DNA from: Candidatus Wolfebacteria bacterium
GTDB taxonomy: Bacteria; Patescibacteriota; Minisyncoccia; Phycocordibacterales; Phycocordibacteraceae
Length of the DNA stretch: 45,419 nucleotides
Assembly: GCA_002400985.2 (NCBI GenBank)
Contig: NVRX02000006.1
Location: 169,368 to 214,786 of the forward strand
Direction: 5' to 3'
The notes beneath the pieces were generated by a model, which did not search any database, was not told the DNA's origin, and saw only the letters and a list, made by a program, of their open reading frames with translations. Of the stretch, positions 28,961-33,825 are shown piece after piece; the stretch's first letter is position 1; each line of letters opens with the position of its first letter. Position numbers and translations under genes: made by a program.

Positions 28961-30025
28961 ATGATTGAATCTGAAATTCTAAAAGTATTTGTCCCTGCTA
29001 TCGTTGCTTTTCTCGTAGGTATTGGAGGAGCTCCTGTACTTACTCATTTTTTATACAAACATAAAGCATGGAAAAAGGTTGGTGGAAGAGGTGTTGGTAT
29101 GGGTGGGGGAGCGACACCAATATTTGATTCATTACACGGAGAAGATGAGACAAAAGTGCCTCGTATGGGAGGAATACTCATTTGGGGATCAGTAGCCATT
29201 ACACTTTTTGGTATTTTTATATTTGCACAACTTGCACCCAATACTATTGCAACAGAACTTGATTTTCTTTCTCGAAGCCAAACATGGATACCTGCAGCAC
29301 TCTTCTTTCTAGGAGCGTTTGTTGGTTTAATTAATGATCTCATTGAAGTTGTGCAAGGAAAGGCTGGTCTTAAACTTCCTGCGCGCCTTCTTATTGTTGG
29401 GTCTGCTGCGGCACTTGCTGCTGTATGGTTTTACACAAAACTTGAAGTTACCTCTATTGGGATTCCTTTTGCGGAACCGCTTGAGCTTGGTATATGGATT
29501 ATTCCATTCTTTATCCTTGGAACACTAGTTATTTATGCCAGTGGAGTTATTGATGGAATAGATGGACTCTCAGGTGGAGTGTTCTCTATTATATTTGGGG
29601 CATATGCAGCGTTAGCATTTTTCCAAGGACAATTTGATATTGCCGCTTTCTCCGCAACAATTGCAGGAGCAACACTTGCATTCCTTTGGTTCAATGTGCC
29701 TCCTGCACGTTTTTATATGACAGAGACAGGAACCATGGCACTCACGCTCGCTCTCGCTACCATTGCCATAATGACAGACACCCTTGGAGACGGTATTGGT
29801 ATTGCAGTACTTCCAATCATTGCACTCCCTCTTATTGGTACAGTTATTACAAATGTGATTCAAGTGTTCTCAAAAAAGGTATTTAAGAAAAAAGTATTTA
29901 AGGTTGCACCTATACATCATCACTTTGAAGCAATAGGGTGGCCATCTCATAAAGTTACAATGCGATATTGGATCATTACCCTTATGTTTGCAATTATTGG
30001 CGTAACGATAGCGATCATTGCCTAA
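28961..30025 (+). CDS. mraY: phospho-N-acetylmuramoyl-pentapeptide-transferase
   Basis: VPRMGGILI, INDLIEV, DGIDGLSGGV, APIHHHFE motifs. Confidence 0.96.
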   Translation: MIESEILKVFVPAIVAFLVGIGGAPVLTHFLYKHKAWKKVGGRGVGMGGGATPIFDSLHGEDETKVPRMGGILIWGSVAITLFGIFIFAQLAPNTIATELDFLSRSQTWIPAALFFLGAFVGLINDLIEVVQGKAGLKLPARLLIVGSAAALAAVWFYTKLEVTSIGIPFAEPLELGIWIIPFFILGTLVIYASGVIDGIDGLSGGVFSIIFGAYAALAFFQGQFDIAAFSATIAGATLAFLWFNVPPARFYMTETGTMALTLALATIAIMTDTLGDGIGIAVLPIIALPLIGTVITNVIQVFSKKVFKKKVFKVAPIHHHFEAIGWPSHKVTMRYWIITLMFAIIGVTIAIIA

Positions 30026-31124
30026 CATACTTAAAAAGGTAGATAAAACATTCCTCATTACCGTGGGGATTCTTGTTATTATCGGTTTCTTTACCTTCTC
30101 CTCTGCGAGCTTGGGACTCCTTCCTAGAGAAAGTGTCTCAGTATCAAAGCTTTTTGCTACACAGCTCATCCTAGGACTCCTCCTGGGGAGTATCGCACTA
30201 ACCATAACCCTCTTTATTCCTCATAAGTTCTATAAGCGTGTAGCATTCTATGGATACATAGCTGCAGTAGCTGCAACAACACTTGTATTTGTCCCTGGTC
30301 TTGGAATAACAGCCAATGGAGCAACGAGGTGGCTTGATCTTGGAGGATTTTCTATACAGCCTGCAGAGTTCTTAAAAATTGGATTGGTATTATATTTGGC
30401 TACATATCTATCTGCTGCAAAGTCACGTATAAAGTTTATGCGTACAGGACTTATTCCTTTTTCTATAATCCTTGGTATTCCCGTACTGATACTTCTCCTT
30501 CAGCCAGATACAGGGACTGCGCTTGTACTTATTGCAACAGCAATAGCAATGTACTTTGCAGCTGGTGCACCATGGAGAGATATAGGACTCCTTGGTCTTG
30601 GAGGTGTGTTGGGGCTTGGAGTGTTAGCTGCCTTCCGTCCATACGTACTTGAGAGGTTTATGACATTCTTGCAACCAGGGAGTGATCCACTCGGTGCCAG
30701 CTACCAAATACAACAATCTCTCATTGCTATTGGTTCTGGAGGAATCTTTGGGAGGGGAATAGGGCAGAGTGTACAAAAGTTTAGTTATCTTCCAGAGCCT
30801 GTAGGGGACTCAGTGTTTGCGGTATTTGCTGAAGAAGTTGGATTTATTGGTGCATTAATACTTCTTGCTCTCTTTGTTGCACTCTTTACCAGAGGTATGA
30901 ATATAGCAACACGAGCACCCAATCAATTCACAGCCCTTGTTGTTGTTGGAATAGTTTCTTCTATTACATTCCAGTCTATATTGAATATAGGTGCAATGCT
31001 GGGCGTATTCCCCCTAACAGGGCTTCCTTTGATTTTTGTTAGCCATGGAGGGACAGCCCTCTTGGTTGCTTTGGCTTCTGTTGGTATCATTCTTCATATA
31101 TCGGCGCATAGCAAGAAGGGGTAA
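30018..31124 (+). CDS. ftsW: FtsW/RodA/SpoVE family (cell division protein FtsW)
   Basis: NGATRWLDLGGFSIQPAEFLKIGLVLYLA, multi-TM; TTG start at 30018 overlapping mraY. Confidence 0.93.
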   Translation: MPNILKKVDKTFLITVGILVIIGFFTFSSASLGLLPRESVSVSKLFATQLILGLLLGSIALTITLFIPHKFYKRVAFYGYIAAVAATTLVFVPGLGITANGATRWLDLGGFSIQPAEFLKIGLVLYLATYLSAAKSRIKFMRTGLIPFSIILGIPVLILLLQPDTGTALVLIATAIAMYFAAGAPWRDIGLLGLGGVLGLGVLAAFRPYVLERFMTFLQPGSDPLGASYQIQQSLIAIGSGGIFGRGIGQSVQKFSYLPEPVGDSVFAVFAEEVGFIGALILLALFVALFTRGMNIATRAPNQFTALVVVGIVSSITFQSILNIGAMLGVFPLTGLPLIFVSHGGTALLVALASVGIILHISAHSKKG

Positions 31125-31142
31125 ACCGTCGTCACTAATAAA

Positions 31143-32006
31143 ATGACCGTAGTAATAGGACAACATTTTTTTGAAGGAGTAATAATAATAGCTGATAGTA
31201 GATCTAGCATTCAAAAAAATGGAGCTGTTGTTCCTTGGAGAGATAACACTCAAAAGATATTCTTTTTAACAAAAGATATCGTCATTAGTTTTGCAGGAGA
31301 CGTTGAATTTGCAGGAGCTATCATTTCTTTCCTTTCAGATCAAATTAATAAAAGACCTAAGTTAGGTATATTAAGTATTTTTATAACCAAAGGTCCGCGA
31401 CTTATAAAATATGCTTACAACTTACTTTCAAATAAAAAAGGTTTCCGTGATGTTGGTTTTATAATTGCTGGGATAGATCCAAAAAGACCTGCACGAGTCA
31501 ATGACTCTAACGGTAAGCAAACTGGTTATATTAATATTTATGATAAAAAAGTTCTAAAAGTTGTTTCTCCAGATTTTGAAACTCAAGAAGCAACCATTAA
31601 AAATCCTTTTGTAATTATGGGAAGTGGAGAACAAGGGATTGAAGGTTTGGAAAAAGATTTTCAAAAACTTCAATTTGGACAATTTTCTAACAACTTAGCT
31701 TTTCAGGCAGTAATAATAGAAACCTCTCTGCGTAAAAAAATAGAATCTCTAGGAATTGATACAGTAGGAGGTCTCTCTCAAATTGCAATAATTGATAGCC
31801 AAGGAGCAAGATTCCAAGGGTATCAAGGAAAGAGAGACCCTTTTGAAGATGGCGATCTGAATGTTGAAATGATCGTTGAAAATGGAAGATTTATTCAAAA
31901 GGATCTCAAAACCGGAAAGGAAATAAAACTTCTTTATCCTCCAGAAGTATTGAGTGTAAATGAGGATGGTAGTGACTTATTTGCAGAACTTGATAATCTA
32001 AAATAA
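31143..32006 (+). CDS. proteasome-beta-like N-terminal-nucleophile hydrolase
   Basis: M-T1VVIG...IIIAD17SR, ...NTQK-IFF, VIMGSGEQGIEGLE (GSG motif), GIDTVGGLSQIAIID (D-x-x-GG motif). Confidence 0.75.
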   Translation: MTVVIGQHFFEGVIIIADSRSSIQKNGAVVPWRDNTQKIFFLTKDIVISFAGDVEFAGAIISFLSDQINKRPKLGILSIFITKGPRLIKYAYNLLSNKKGFRDVGFIIAGIDPKRPARVNDSNGKQTGYINIYDKKVLKVVSPDFETQEATIKNPFVIMGSGEQGIEGLEKDFQKLQFGQFSNNLAFQAVIIETSLRKKIESLGIDTVGGLSQIAIIDSQGARFQGYQGKRDPFEDGDLNVEMIVENGRFIQKDLKTGKEIKLLYPPEVLSVNEDGSDLFAELDNLK

Positions 32007-32008
32007 TA

Positions 32009-32671
32009 ATGGAGTCTGAAACAGTAAATTTTCAAGCTTGGAACACAGTAATTCTTGCAATAACAGCTTTGGTCATCTGGGCTTATACTTTTGAAGCTCA
32101 AAAAAGTAATGAGATACAAGAGCGTCCTTTGCTTGATTTTTATATTAAAAAAACAAGTACTGGCGCAAACACTGATCTACTTTTTTATATTAGAAATATA
32201 AGTAAACGCACAGCGTTTAATATAGAAATTGAATCAATAAGAACACATGGAAATTTTATTTACACTCCAAACATGGAAGATGAGGTGAACATGAGAGTCT
32301 CTCCACTATCAGAGGAAGAGATTAGATTTTGGATCAAAATGCCTGACAATGCCACTCAAATCTACCCTACAATTACTGGCGTTCAATCTTTAATTTCCAG
32401 ACTCTTTTGTATAGATGCTAATCTTGCGAATGAGCAACTTCGCAAGATTGGAGGTTTATTTGTAGTTAATTTCCAAGCTGCTAATGGAAAATTTTACCAT
32501 GAAGTTTTTCGATTTTACCCACCGCTAACACTTATTTTTGATAGCGACTTAATAGTTCAATTTGTAACAGGAGGTAGTGGTAAAATAACAAAAGCAGAAG
32601 CTTTAGCAGAAGCTGAAACAATGCCACTATTAAAACATGCAGCAGAACGTAACACGCAAGATTTAGTATAA
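32009..32671 (+). CDS. hypothetical single-TM protein, probable partner of the upstream gene
   Basis: N-terminal TM, soluble domain; starts 2 nt after the upstream stop. Confidence 0.65.
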   Translation: MESETVNFQAWNTVILAITALVIWAYTFEAQKSNEIQERPLLDFYIKKTSTGANTDLLFYIRNISKRTAFNIEIESIRTHGNFIYTPNMEDEVNMRVSPLSEEEIRFWIKMPDNATQIYPTITGVQSLISRLFCIDANLANEQLRKIGGLFVVNFQAANGKFYHEVFRFYPPLTLIFDSDLIVQFVTGGSGKITKAEALAEAETMPLLKHAAERNTQDLV

Positions 32672-32679
32672 TAAACAAC

Positions 32680-33825
32680 ATGAAAATCGCACTAACAGGA
32701 GGAGGATCAGGAGGGCACTTTTATCCACTTATAGCAGTAGCGGAGGAAATCCGTGCTATTGAAGATGAAAGGCACCTCGTACCACCCAAACTCTTCTATT
32801 TCGCGCCATCTCCATATAACAAACAAGCACTCTTTGAAAATGACATTGAGTTTGTGAGAATACCCGCAGGGAAGGTATATAGGTATTTCAATATAAAAAC
32901 CTTCACGGGTATCTTCGTAACACTATGGGGAACACTCATTGCGCTATGGACGCTCTTTCGTATATACCCAGACGTTATCTTCTCTAAAGGAAGCTTTGCG
33001 AGTGTGCCCGTAACACTTGCTGCACGAGTACTCCGTATCCCTTTAATAATCCATGATTCAGATGCAAAGCCAGGGAGAGCAAACCTTTTGGCAAGTAAGC
33101 AAGCATTCCGTATTGCGGTGTCATTCCCAGACACAACAAAGTACTGGCCAGAGAAAGTACACGCAAAGATTGCATACACGGGGACACCAGTGCGAAAAGC
33201 ACTCCATACTCTAGATGGGGAAGGTGCACGAGAGTATTTGAATATAAAAGACAATCTTCCTGTTGTATTGGTTGTAACAGGATCTTTGGGAAGTCAGTAT
33301 GTAAATCAGGTGGTGGTAGATGCGCTAACAACAATACTTCCTAAAGCACATGTAATACACCAAACAGGGAAGAACCTCTTTAAAGGAGTGAAGGCACGAA
33401 CAGGTGTAATACTGCATGAGAAAGAATATAAGGATAGATACCATGTACAGCCATACCTTTCAGCGAGTGCACTGCAACAAGCAGCAAGTATTGCTGATGT
33501 AATAATATCTAGATCTGGAGCAACTGCTTTATCTGAGTTTGCTCTATGGGGGAAGCCTTCAATCCTTATCCCTATACCTGAGAAGGTATCCCATGATCAG
33601 CGTACAAATGCATACGCATACGCAAAGAGTGGAGCTGCTGTTGTATTAGAGCAAGAAAATATGAGTCCAGGCATCTTGGCTTCTCAAGCACTTTCTATAA
33701 TTTCAGACAATAACAAGAAGCTGGTTATGGGCTCAGCCGCAAAACACTTTGCACGCCCTGATGCAGGGAAGGTAATAGCAGAGGAACTAGTACGTATAGG
33801 CCTTGAACACGACTCGAAGGAATAA
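32680..33825 (+). CDS. murG: UDP-GlcNAc--lipid II GlcNAc transferase
   Basis: ALTGGGSGGHFYPLIAVAEEI, GT28 C-terminal domain SRSGATALSEFALWGKPSILIPIP. Confidence 0.95.
   Translation: MKIALTGGGSGGHFYPLIAVAEEIRAIEDERHLVPPKLFYFAPSPYNKQALFENDIEFVRIPAGKVYRYFNIKTFTGIFVTLWGTLIALWTLFRIYPDVIFSKGSFASVPVTLAARVLRIPLIIHDSDAKPGRANLLASKQAFRIAVSFPDTTKYWPEKVHAKIAYTGTPVRKALHTLDGEGAREYLNIKDNLPVVLVVTGSLGSQYVNQVVVDALTTILPKAHVIHQTGKNLFKGVKARTGVILHEKEYKDRYHVQPYLSASALQQAASIADVIISRSGATALSEFALWGKPSILIPIPEKVSHDQRTNAYAYAKSGAAVVLEQENMSPGILASQALSIISDNNKKLVMGSAAKHFARPDAGKVIAEELVRIGLEHDSKE

What the first reader, a model, noticed from the sequence alone, without database searches (positions are those of the whole stretch)
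31143..32006. Proteasome-beta-like Ntn hydrolase inside the mraY-ftsW-murG cluster
The protein starts M-TVVIG, so Met removal would expose Thr1. Counting from that Thr, Asp falls exactly at position 17 (IIIADSR). A candidate Lys33 equivalent follows (NTQK), then a GSG motif (VIMGSGEQGIEGLE) and D-x-x-GG (GIDTVGGLSQIAII), the usual arrangement in proteasome beta/HslV/Anbu catalytic folds. It lacks a propeptide, has a ~60-aa C-terminal extension, and no HslU, Mpa or other unfoldase gene is visible nearby. It sits between two peptidoglycan/division genes. This may be a divergent, ATPase-independent self-compartmentalising peptidase or another Ntn amidase.
Basis: partly seen in the sequence, partly recalled or inferred. 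Interest (0 to 1): 0.78.

Follow-up and report, generated by a model that had tools for sequence, protein, structure and literature searches.

The report
Proteasome-like enzyme in defence-type gene cassette
A tiny (0.59 Mb) genome, probably of a Patescibacteria (CPR) bacterium, carries a real relative of the proteasome's cutting subunit, dropped with a membrane-protein partner into a spot where a sister species keeps a predicted anti-phage system; relatives of both genes turn up inside restriction-modification loci, hinting that proteasome-like enzymes were recruited into bacterial defence.

Summary
The gene at 31143-32006 encodes a proteasome-like Ntn hydrolase: its AlphaFold model matches 20S beta subunits and Anbu (probability 1.00), and Thr2, Asp18, Lys38, GSG and D-x-x-GG sit where catalytic residues are expected. 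It is under purifying selection. It is not a 20S beta, HslV or connectase, and is the only PF00227 hit in the genome.

The mur/division setting is incidental. The gene and the next one (32009-32671: N-terminal helix, probably membrane-spanning, plus beta-sandwich) form a two-gene insert with sharp edges between ftsW and murG. Genus-mates carry other genes there, one pair being PADLOC's defence candidate PDC-M34A/B; most more distant relatives have ftsW next to murG. The Ntn gene was found in 1 of 99 family genomes.

Homologs of the second gene lie beside restriction-modification genes or an HNH nuclease in 6 of 6 other genomes. Proteasome-like genes of other Patescibacteria lie within 5 kb of a DNA methyltransferase in 7 of 18 genomes (0.35 expected). 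One type I R-M operon holds both kinds of gene. Such proteasome homologs were described in 2021 without functional context. I favour a defence-associated regulated peptidase; the enzyme assignment is firm, the defence role inferred, substrate and assembly unknown.

The parts
31125..32679 (+). Two-gene insertion between ftsW and murG
   Evidence: DNA homology to genus-mates G732/G733 runs to the ftsW stop and resumes just before the murG ATG, with unrelated genes in between; in 9 of 13 family members of other genera ftsW ends within about 30 bp of murG. GC 32.5-34% against about 43% for ftsW and murG.
31143..32006 (+). Proteasome-like Ntn hydrolase, 287 aa
   Evidence: PF00227; profile vs PDB E=8e-11; AlphaFold pTM 0.80 and Foldseek to 20S beta/Anbu, probability 1.00.
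31146..31148 (+). Thr2, predicted N-terminal nucleophile after Met removal
   Evidence: Thr or Ser at this place in the aligned relatives.
31194..31196 (+). Asp18 (Asp17 of the proteasome)
   Evidence: Invariant in A4, A5 and A8.
31254..31256 (+). Lys38 (Lys33 equivalent, after a short insert)
   Evidence: Invariant in A4, A5 and A8.
31296..31298 (+). Gly52 (oxyanion-hole Gly47 equivalent)
   Evidence: End of strand 46-52, before helix 54-70 in the model.
31620..31628 (+). Gly-Ser-Gly 160-162 (Ser129 region)
   Evidence: G160 invariant; motif kept in L002, L009 and L005, GTG in L004.
31758..31772 (+). D206-T-V-G-G210 (Asp166 region; Gly where Ser169 stands)
   Evidence: GG invariant.
31818..32003 (+). 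C-terminal extension: beta hairpin (residues 241-254) and short helix (279-285)
   Evidence: Model; similar tail in L002, L009, L004 and L005.
32009..32671 (+). Partner gene, 220 aa: N-terminal helix (probable membrane anchor) plus beta-sandwich domain; family found beside restriction-modification genes
   Evidence: Homologs in 6 other genomes next to hsdM/hsdS/hsdR, a type II MTase + REase, or an HNH nuclease; model helix 6-38 then beta strands, low confidence.
30018..31124 (+). ftsW, left boundary gene (not part of the cassette)
   Evidence: PF01098 E=4e-96.
32680..33825 (+). murG, right boundary gene (not part of the cassette)
   Evidence: PF04101 and PF03033.

Best explanation
The gene encodes an active-looking proteasome-like Ntn peptidase whose Thr nucleophile would be exposed simply by removal of the initiator Met. 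With the next gene, a probably membrane-anchored beta-sandwich protein, it forms an acquired accessory cassette of defence type at a variable site between ftsW and murG. Most likely mechanism (inferred): the partner acts at the membrane as sensor, scaffold or substrate, and the peptidase makes selective cuts in a target protein without a dedicated unfoldase, either to restrain or reset a DNA-targeting nuclease (as ClpXP does with HsdR in restriction alleviation, PMC4231737) or as an infection-triggered effector. Shown: fold, catalytic residues, purifying selection, insertion site, and genomic associations of both gene families. Inferred: catalysis, partnership, defence role, substrate.
For: Enzyme. 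Accessory insert: sharp boundaries against genus-mates; G733 carries PDC-M34A+B, a PADLOC phage-defence candidate pair (DUF5343 + HEPN_Swt1), and G732 an unknown ORF at the same site; ftsW next to murG in 9 of 13 members of other genera; Ntn found in 1 of 99 family genomes. Partner: homologs in G051 (hsdM-X-hsdS), G059 (after hsdR), G447 and G518 (N6/N4 MTase - MvaI/BcnI REase - X), G548 (N6 MTase, hsdM-like - X), G584 (HNH - X). Ntn genes elsewhere in Patescibacteria: MTase within 5 kb in 7 of 18 genomes vs 0.35 expected, P about 9e-9, with type I, type III and type II neighbours verified. The G059 type I operon holds both a proteasome-like gene and a homolog of the window's partner. A distant relative of the window enzyme (G278, 24-26%) also has a protein with the partner-family motif next door.
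Against: The two closest relatives (L002, 64%; L009, 53%) have neither the partner nor R-M genes beside them. The R-M association rests mainly on another subfamily (Ser nucleophile, LexA-type HTH neighbour). The window genome has no PF01555 or PF02384 methyltransferase match. PADLOC has no model for either window gene. The insertion site is not reserved for defence: one other family member has a NUDIX-like gene there and two have unknown ORFs. The motif match in G278's neighbour covers only 40 columns. Four of the six partner homologs are weak profile hits (E 1.5e-5 to 1.8e-4). No activity data.
Confidence: 0.48

Rival explanations
1. A self-compartmentalising, ATPase-independent housekeeping peptidase (ring or split ring like BPH or Anbu) that clears unfolded proteins, with the neighbour unrelated.
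For: Fold and catalytic residues match 20S beta and Anbu; no propeptide and no unfoldase nearby. L002 and L009 stand without the partner.
Against: Found in 1 of 99 family genomes and in only a few of several hundred Patescibacteria genomes, so not housekeeping. Oligomerisation was not tested.
Confidence: 0.17
2. A neutral or metabolic cargo gene pair with no role in defence.
For: The ftsW-murG site takes varied inserts: a NUDIX-like gene in G740 and ORFs without a recognised family in G732, G670 and G755.
Against: Purifying selection (dN/dS about 0.16) and repeated linkage of both gene families to R-M loci.
Confidence: 0.19
3. A Connectase-like specific protein ligase/transpeptidase or other Ntn amidase acting on one partner, not a general protease.
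For: Members of the same superfamily include the monomeric ligase connectase (PMC8665760). A short low-confidence insert precedes Lys38 (model residues 24-37), and the C-terminal extension is conserved in relatives.
Against: Helices H1/H2, absent in connectase, are present (residues 54-70 and 77-99), and there is no two-helix S3/S4 insert.
Confidence: 0.12
4. An enzyme of peptidoglycan synthesis or division, regulating FtsW/MurG or cleaving peptidoglycan peptides.
For: Position between ftsW and murG.
Against: The site holds unrelated genes in genus-mates and little or nothing in most other genera; relatives are not in mur clusters.
Confidence: 0.04

Closest known systems
Proteasome-like homologs of Fuchs, Alva and Lupas 2021 (PMC8665760), group II (PMI-1 to PMI-6 and others) and the related WPH and PHI
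   Same: Thr1/Ser1, Asp17, Lys33 and Gly47 on a proteasome-beta fold, no propeptide, no cognate AAA+, sporadic distribution with HGT; one PMI-3 representative (OGZ26396.1) looks like a candidate-phylum accession (from memory).
   Different: That paper reports no genomic context suggestive of function; here R-M and defence contexts are seen. Assignment to one of its clusters was not possible because its sequences are not held.
20S proteasome beta subunit (archaeal/actinobacterial)
   Same: Best structural match, same catalytic residues.
   Different: About 13-21% identity in the structural matches, NCBIfam arc_protsome_B 20.5 bits against a cut-off of 224, no separate alpha subunit gene found in the genome, no propeptide, extra C-terminal beta hairpin.
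Anbu
   Same: Foldseek probability 1.00, TMt 0.55-0.60; a C-terminal extension exists.
   Different: Anbu's extension is a long helix (H5) forming a coiled coil; here it is a beta hairpin and a short C-terminal helix.
ClpXP-dependent restriction alleviation of EcoKI
   Same: Precedent for a compartmentalised protease controlling an R-M enzyme (PMC4231737).
   Different: ClpP is not an Ntn hydrolase and is a housekeeping gene; here the peptidase genes are themselves carried in R-M/defence loci.
PDC-M34 (PADLOC phage-defence candidate)
   Same: Two-gene insert at the same ftsW-murG site in genus-mate G733.
   Different: Unrelated proteins (DUF5343 + HEPN_Swt1).

Membership tests
Proteasome-like (Ntn, PF00227 clan) | Proteasome-beta fold | tested here: met
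   Model pTM 0.80; Foldseek to 20S beta, probability 1.00, TMt up to 0.74.
Proteasome-like (Ntn, PF00227 clan) | N-terminal Thr/Ser nucleophile, Asp17, Lys33, Gly47 | tested here: met
   T2 (Thr/Ser in relatives), D18, K38, G52.
Proteasome-like (Ntn, PF00227 clan) | Sequence profile match | tested here: met
   PF00227 E=2.6e-4, just under the cut-off alone and just over it in the genome search; relatives' profile finds PDB proteasomes at 8e-11.
20S proteasome beta | Curated equivalog score; alpha subunit partner | tested here: not met
   20.5 bits vs 224; this gene is the only PF00227 hit in the genome.
HslV | HslV model match and an HslU gene nearby | tested here: not met
   No HslV NCBIfam hit at E<=1; no HslU-like ORF recognised by eye among ORFs of 100 aa or more at 24-40 kb.
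Anbu | Long C-terminal coiled-coil helix H5 | tested here: not met
   C-terminus is a beta hairpin and a short helix 279-285.
Connectase | No H1/H2; two-helix insert between S3 and S4 | tested here: not met
   Helices 54-70 and 77-99 present; the region before K38 is coil.
PMI clusters (PMC8665760) | Sequence clustering with PMI members; inserts between H3/H4 or after H1/H2 | tested here: inconclusive
Self-compartmentalising protease | Ring or split-ring oligomer with internal active sites | not testable with these tools
   No multimer prediction or biochemistry.
Anti-phage defence system | Protects cells from phage or plasmid | not testable with these tools
   Only genomic association.

The most novel reading that the evidence does not exclude
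Proteasome-like Ntn peptidases have been recruited repeatedly in Patescibacteria as built-in accessory proteins of restriction-modification and other defence systems, and the window carries a two-gene version (peptidase + membrane-anchored beta-sandwich partner) that acts as a defence cassette on its own.
Probability: 0.38. Interest if true: 0.78.

Novelty: new variant of a known kind. Interest (0 to 1): 0.6.

Why it matters
Twenty-two groups of proteasome homologs were described in 2021 with no clue to function. A statistically strong link between such genes and R-M loci in Patescibacteria, a shared family of membrane-anchored partners, and an insertion site also used by a defence candidate would give a first testable function: proteolytic control of, or an effector role in, bacterial immunity. 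It would add proteasome-type proteolysis to the defence repertoire and offers minimal two-gene systems for bench work.

Tried and rejected
Peptidoglycan/division role: rejected by synteny. Phage or plasmid carriage of the window type: no relative in phages, viral contigs or, apart from one distant Salmonella plasmid protein on two records (26.6% over 57%), plasmids. Recent transfer judged by codon usage: not supported; synonymous codon choice of the two genes is not an outlier, only GC and GC3 are low. Insertion site as a pure defence hotspot: not supported, since other family members have a NUDIX-like gene or unknown ORFs there. Single-sequence comparison of the partner with G278's neighbour: not significant; profile comparison: a 40-column motif match. 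Fold of the partner: no significant PDB match. The tree joins the distant relatives (G278, G227, Salmonella) to the window clade only weakly. Literature searches found no earlier report of proteasome homologs in R-M loci, within the held library only.

Full report
OBSERVATION. The ORF at 31143-32006 encodes 287 aa beginning MTVVIG; no other start codon lies in the six open codons upstream, so Thr2 becomes residue 1 after Met removal. D18, K38, G52, GSG 160-162 and D206-x-x-GG 209-210 occur where a proteasome-type site needs them, K38 about four residues later than canonical Lys33. Pfam PF00227 matches at E=2.6e-4, just under the curated cut-off alone and just over it in the genome search. A 9-row profile finds 192 distinct PDB sequences, all 60 listed being proteasome subunits, best 8e-11. 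The AlphaFold model (mean pLDDT 78.7, pTM 0.80) matches 20S beta chains and Anbu at Foldseek probability 1.00. dN/dS to the 64%-identical relative L002 is about 0.16 (pS 0.66, so dS is rough), hence a functional gene.

SURROUNDINGS. The genome is 0.59 Mb in 7 contigs, 95% complete, and the closest named relative of the protein is in a Patescibacteria MAG; I infer that the window is patescibacterial. The gene is followed by an orphan ORF (32009-32671, 220 aa), then murG. Both inserted genes have GC 32.5-34% against 43% for ftsW and murG, and the Ntn gene's GC3 (17%) is the lowest of the ORFs listed, although synonymous codon choice is not an outlier. In genus-mates G732 and G733, DNA homology runs up to the ftsW stop and resumes just before the murG start, with unrelated genes in between: an unknown ORF in G732, and in G733 the pair DUF5343 + HEPN_Swt1, which PADLOC calls PDC-M34A and PDC-M34B, a phage-defence candidate. 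Of 13 family members of other genera, 9 have ftsW ending within about 30 bp of murG, one has a 0.15 kb gap and three have 0.5-0.9 kb between them, holding by eye a NUDIX-like gene in one and unknown ORFs in two. The Ntn gene was found in 1 of 99 genomes of the family. The location is therefore a permissive insertion site, not a functional clue to cell-wall synthesis, and not by itself proof of defence.

RELATIVES OF THE ENZYME. Patescibacteria hold proteasome-like genes sporadically: 6 of 384 genomes of the class with one profile, 14 of 380 of the phylum with a broader one (both counts include the window genome). In the tree, (A) the window, L002 and L009 form one clade, with G278, G227 and a Salmonella plasmid protein weakly attached; the conserved C-terminal tail also links the window clade to G278 and G227. 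(B) Four ~233-aa enzymes (G694, G526, G507, G476) each sit directly downstream of a ~120-aa GIY-YIG-like gene; Pfam supports GIY-YIG weakly in two (E=0.028 and 7e-4) and gives no hit in the two others, so for those it rests on sequence likeness. (C) Larger enzymes with Ser in place of Thr sit mostly behind a LexA-type HTH gene.

LINK TO RESTRICTION-MODIFICATION. In G059 a group C gene lies inside a type I R-M operon: hsdM, LexA-HTH, Ntn, a small membrane-like protein, hsdS, an ORF, hsdR, and then a homolog of the window's partner gene. Others lie beside type III res + mod (G064), TdeIII + MTase (G090), a LexA-MTase fusion + BsaWI-type REase (G069), a LexA-S24-MTase fusion + MamI-type REase (G158), and an MTase (G507, group B). 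Using two methyltransferase Pfam families over whole genomes, 7 of 18 Ntn loci have one within 5 kb against 0.35 expected from their density (P about 9e-9; 5 of 18 within 3 kb, P about 9e-7). Approximate gene mid-points and rounded genome sizes were used. One of the seven (G290) is a ParB/methylase-like gene in a phage-like stretch. Six of the seven are group C, one is group B; none is in the window clade.

THE PARTNER. The 220-aa protein is predicted to have an N-terminal helix (6-38), probably membrane-spanning, and a beta-sandwich-like domain (pLDDT 68, pTM 0.65), with no significant PDB match and no Pfam, NCBIfam, PHROG or PADLOC match. Homologs were found in 6 other genomes. Two are strong (G051, E=8e-34; G059, E=4e-14) and four are weak but share the N-x-G-x-G-x-A-x-N type motif, with variations (E 1.5e-5 to 1.8e-4 per genome, about 0.08 false hits expected over 384 genomes). 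All six are encoded beside R-M genes or, in one case, an HNH nuclease. The distant enzyme of G278 also has a neighbour with this motif (40 columns). Thus two lines, one per gene, point to the same kind of context, and one operon (G059) contains both families.

INTERPRETATION. I infer an acquired defence-type cassette: a peptidase armed by Met removal plus a membrane-anchored partner. A dedicated peptidase could hold back a nuclease, as ClpXP degrades HsdR in restriction alleviation (PMC4231737), or act as an infection-triggered effector; the present data do not separate these. The window genome has no PF01555 or PF02384 methyltransferase match, which favours a self-standing role here. Weak points: the closest relatives L002 and L009 lack the partner and R-M neighbours; the R-M statistics come mainly from group C; nothing biochemical is known.

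KNOWN OR NEW. Fuchs, Alva and Lupas (PMC8665760) described 22 new proteasome-like groups in 2021 and reported no informative genomic context. The window protein belongs to that broad family; its cluster could not be tested here. It fails tests for 20S beta, HslV, Anbu and connectase. New here are the insertion site shared with a defence candidate, the partner family, and the R-M association in Patescibacteria. I rate it a new variant of a known kind.

Noticed in passing
L010:1138-2196, L011:1129-2223, L012:1051-2127, L013:1120-2201: A ~120-aa GIY-YIG-like gene lies directly upstream of a ~233-aa proteasome-like Ntn gene in four genomes: a conserved two-gene pair.
   Followed up: partly
L047, L048, L049, L051, L052 (wider context in L057, L063-L065, L067): LexA-type HTH gene directly upstream of a Ser-type proteasome-like gene of about 320-340 aa, mostly inside or beside R-M loci of types I, II and III.
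   Followed up: partly
L068:6174-7736 and L067:2410-4311: DNA methyltransferases fused behind a LexA-like N-terminus; in L068 Pfam shows LexA HTH + Peptidase_S24 + N6_N4_Mtase, i.e. a possible SOS-cleavable methyltransferase beside a restriction enzyme.
   Followed up: no
L057:7152-7715: 187-aa protein with an N-terminal hydrophobic stretch between the proteasome-like gene and hsdS in the G059 type I R-M operon.
   Followed up: no
L005:19-1764 (G227): 581-aa protein with an N-terminal proteasome-like domain and a long C-terminal part weakly like DUF6941; a DUF4365 gene lies next to it.
   Followed up: partly
L061:4684-6298 (G103): A proteasome-like gene followed by a 279-aa ORF with no Pfam match that might be a diverged second subunit.
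   Followed up: no
L007:8001-9041 (Salmonella plasmid pRSE21): 346-aa distant relative (26.6% over 57%) annotated as hypothetical protein, near a VapBC pair and an IS3 element.
   Followed up: partly
L065:5052-11933 (G130): Proteasome-like gene near DUF2779, an HTH-reverse transcriptase and GmrSD genes: looks like a defence island.
   Followed up: no
L016:2682-3443 (G732), L020:1000-1500, L026:2640-3500, L029:640-1500: Other inserts at the same ftsW-murG site: unknown ORF in genus-mate G732, NUDIX-like gene in L020, unknown ORFs in L026 and L029.
   Followed up: partly
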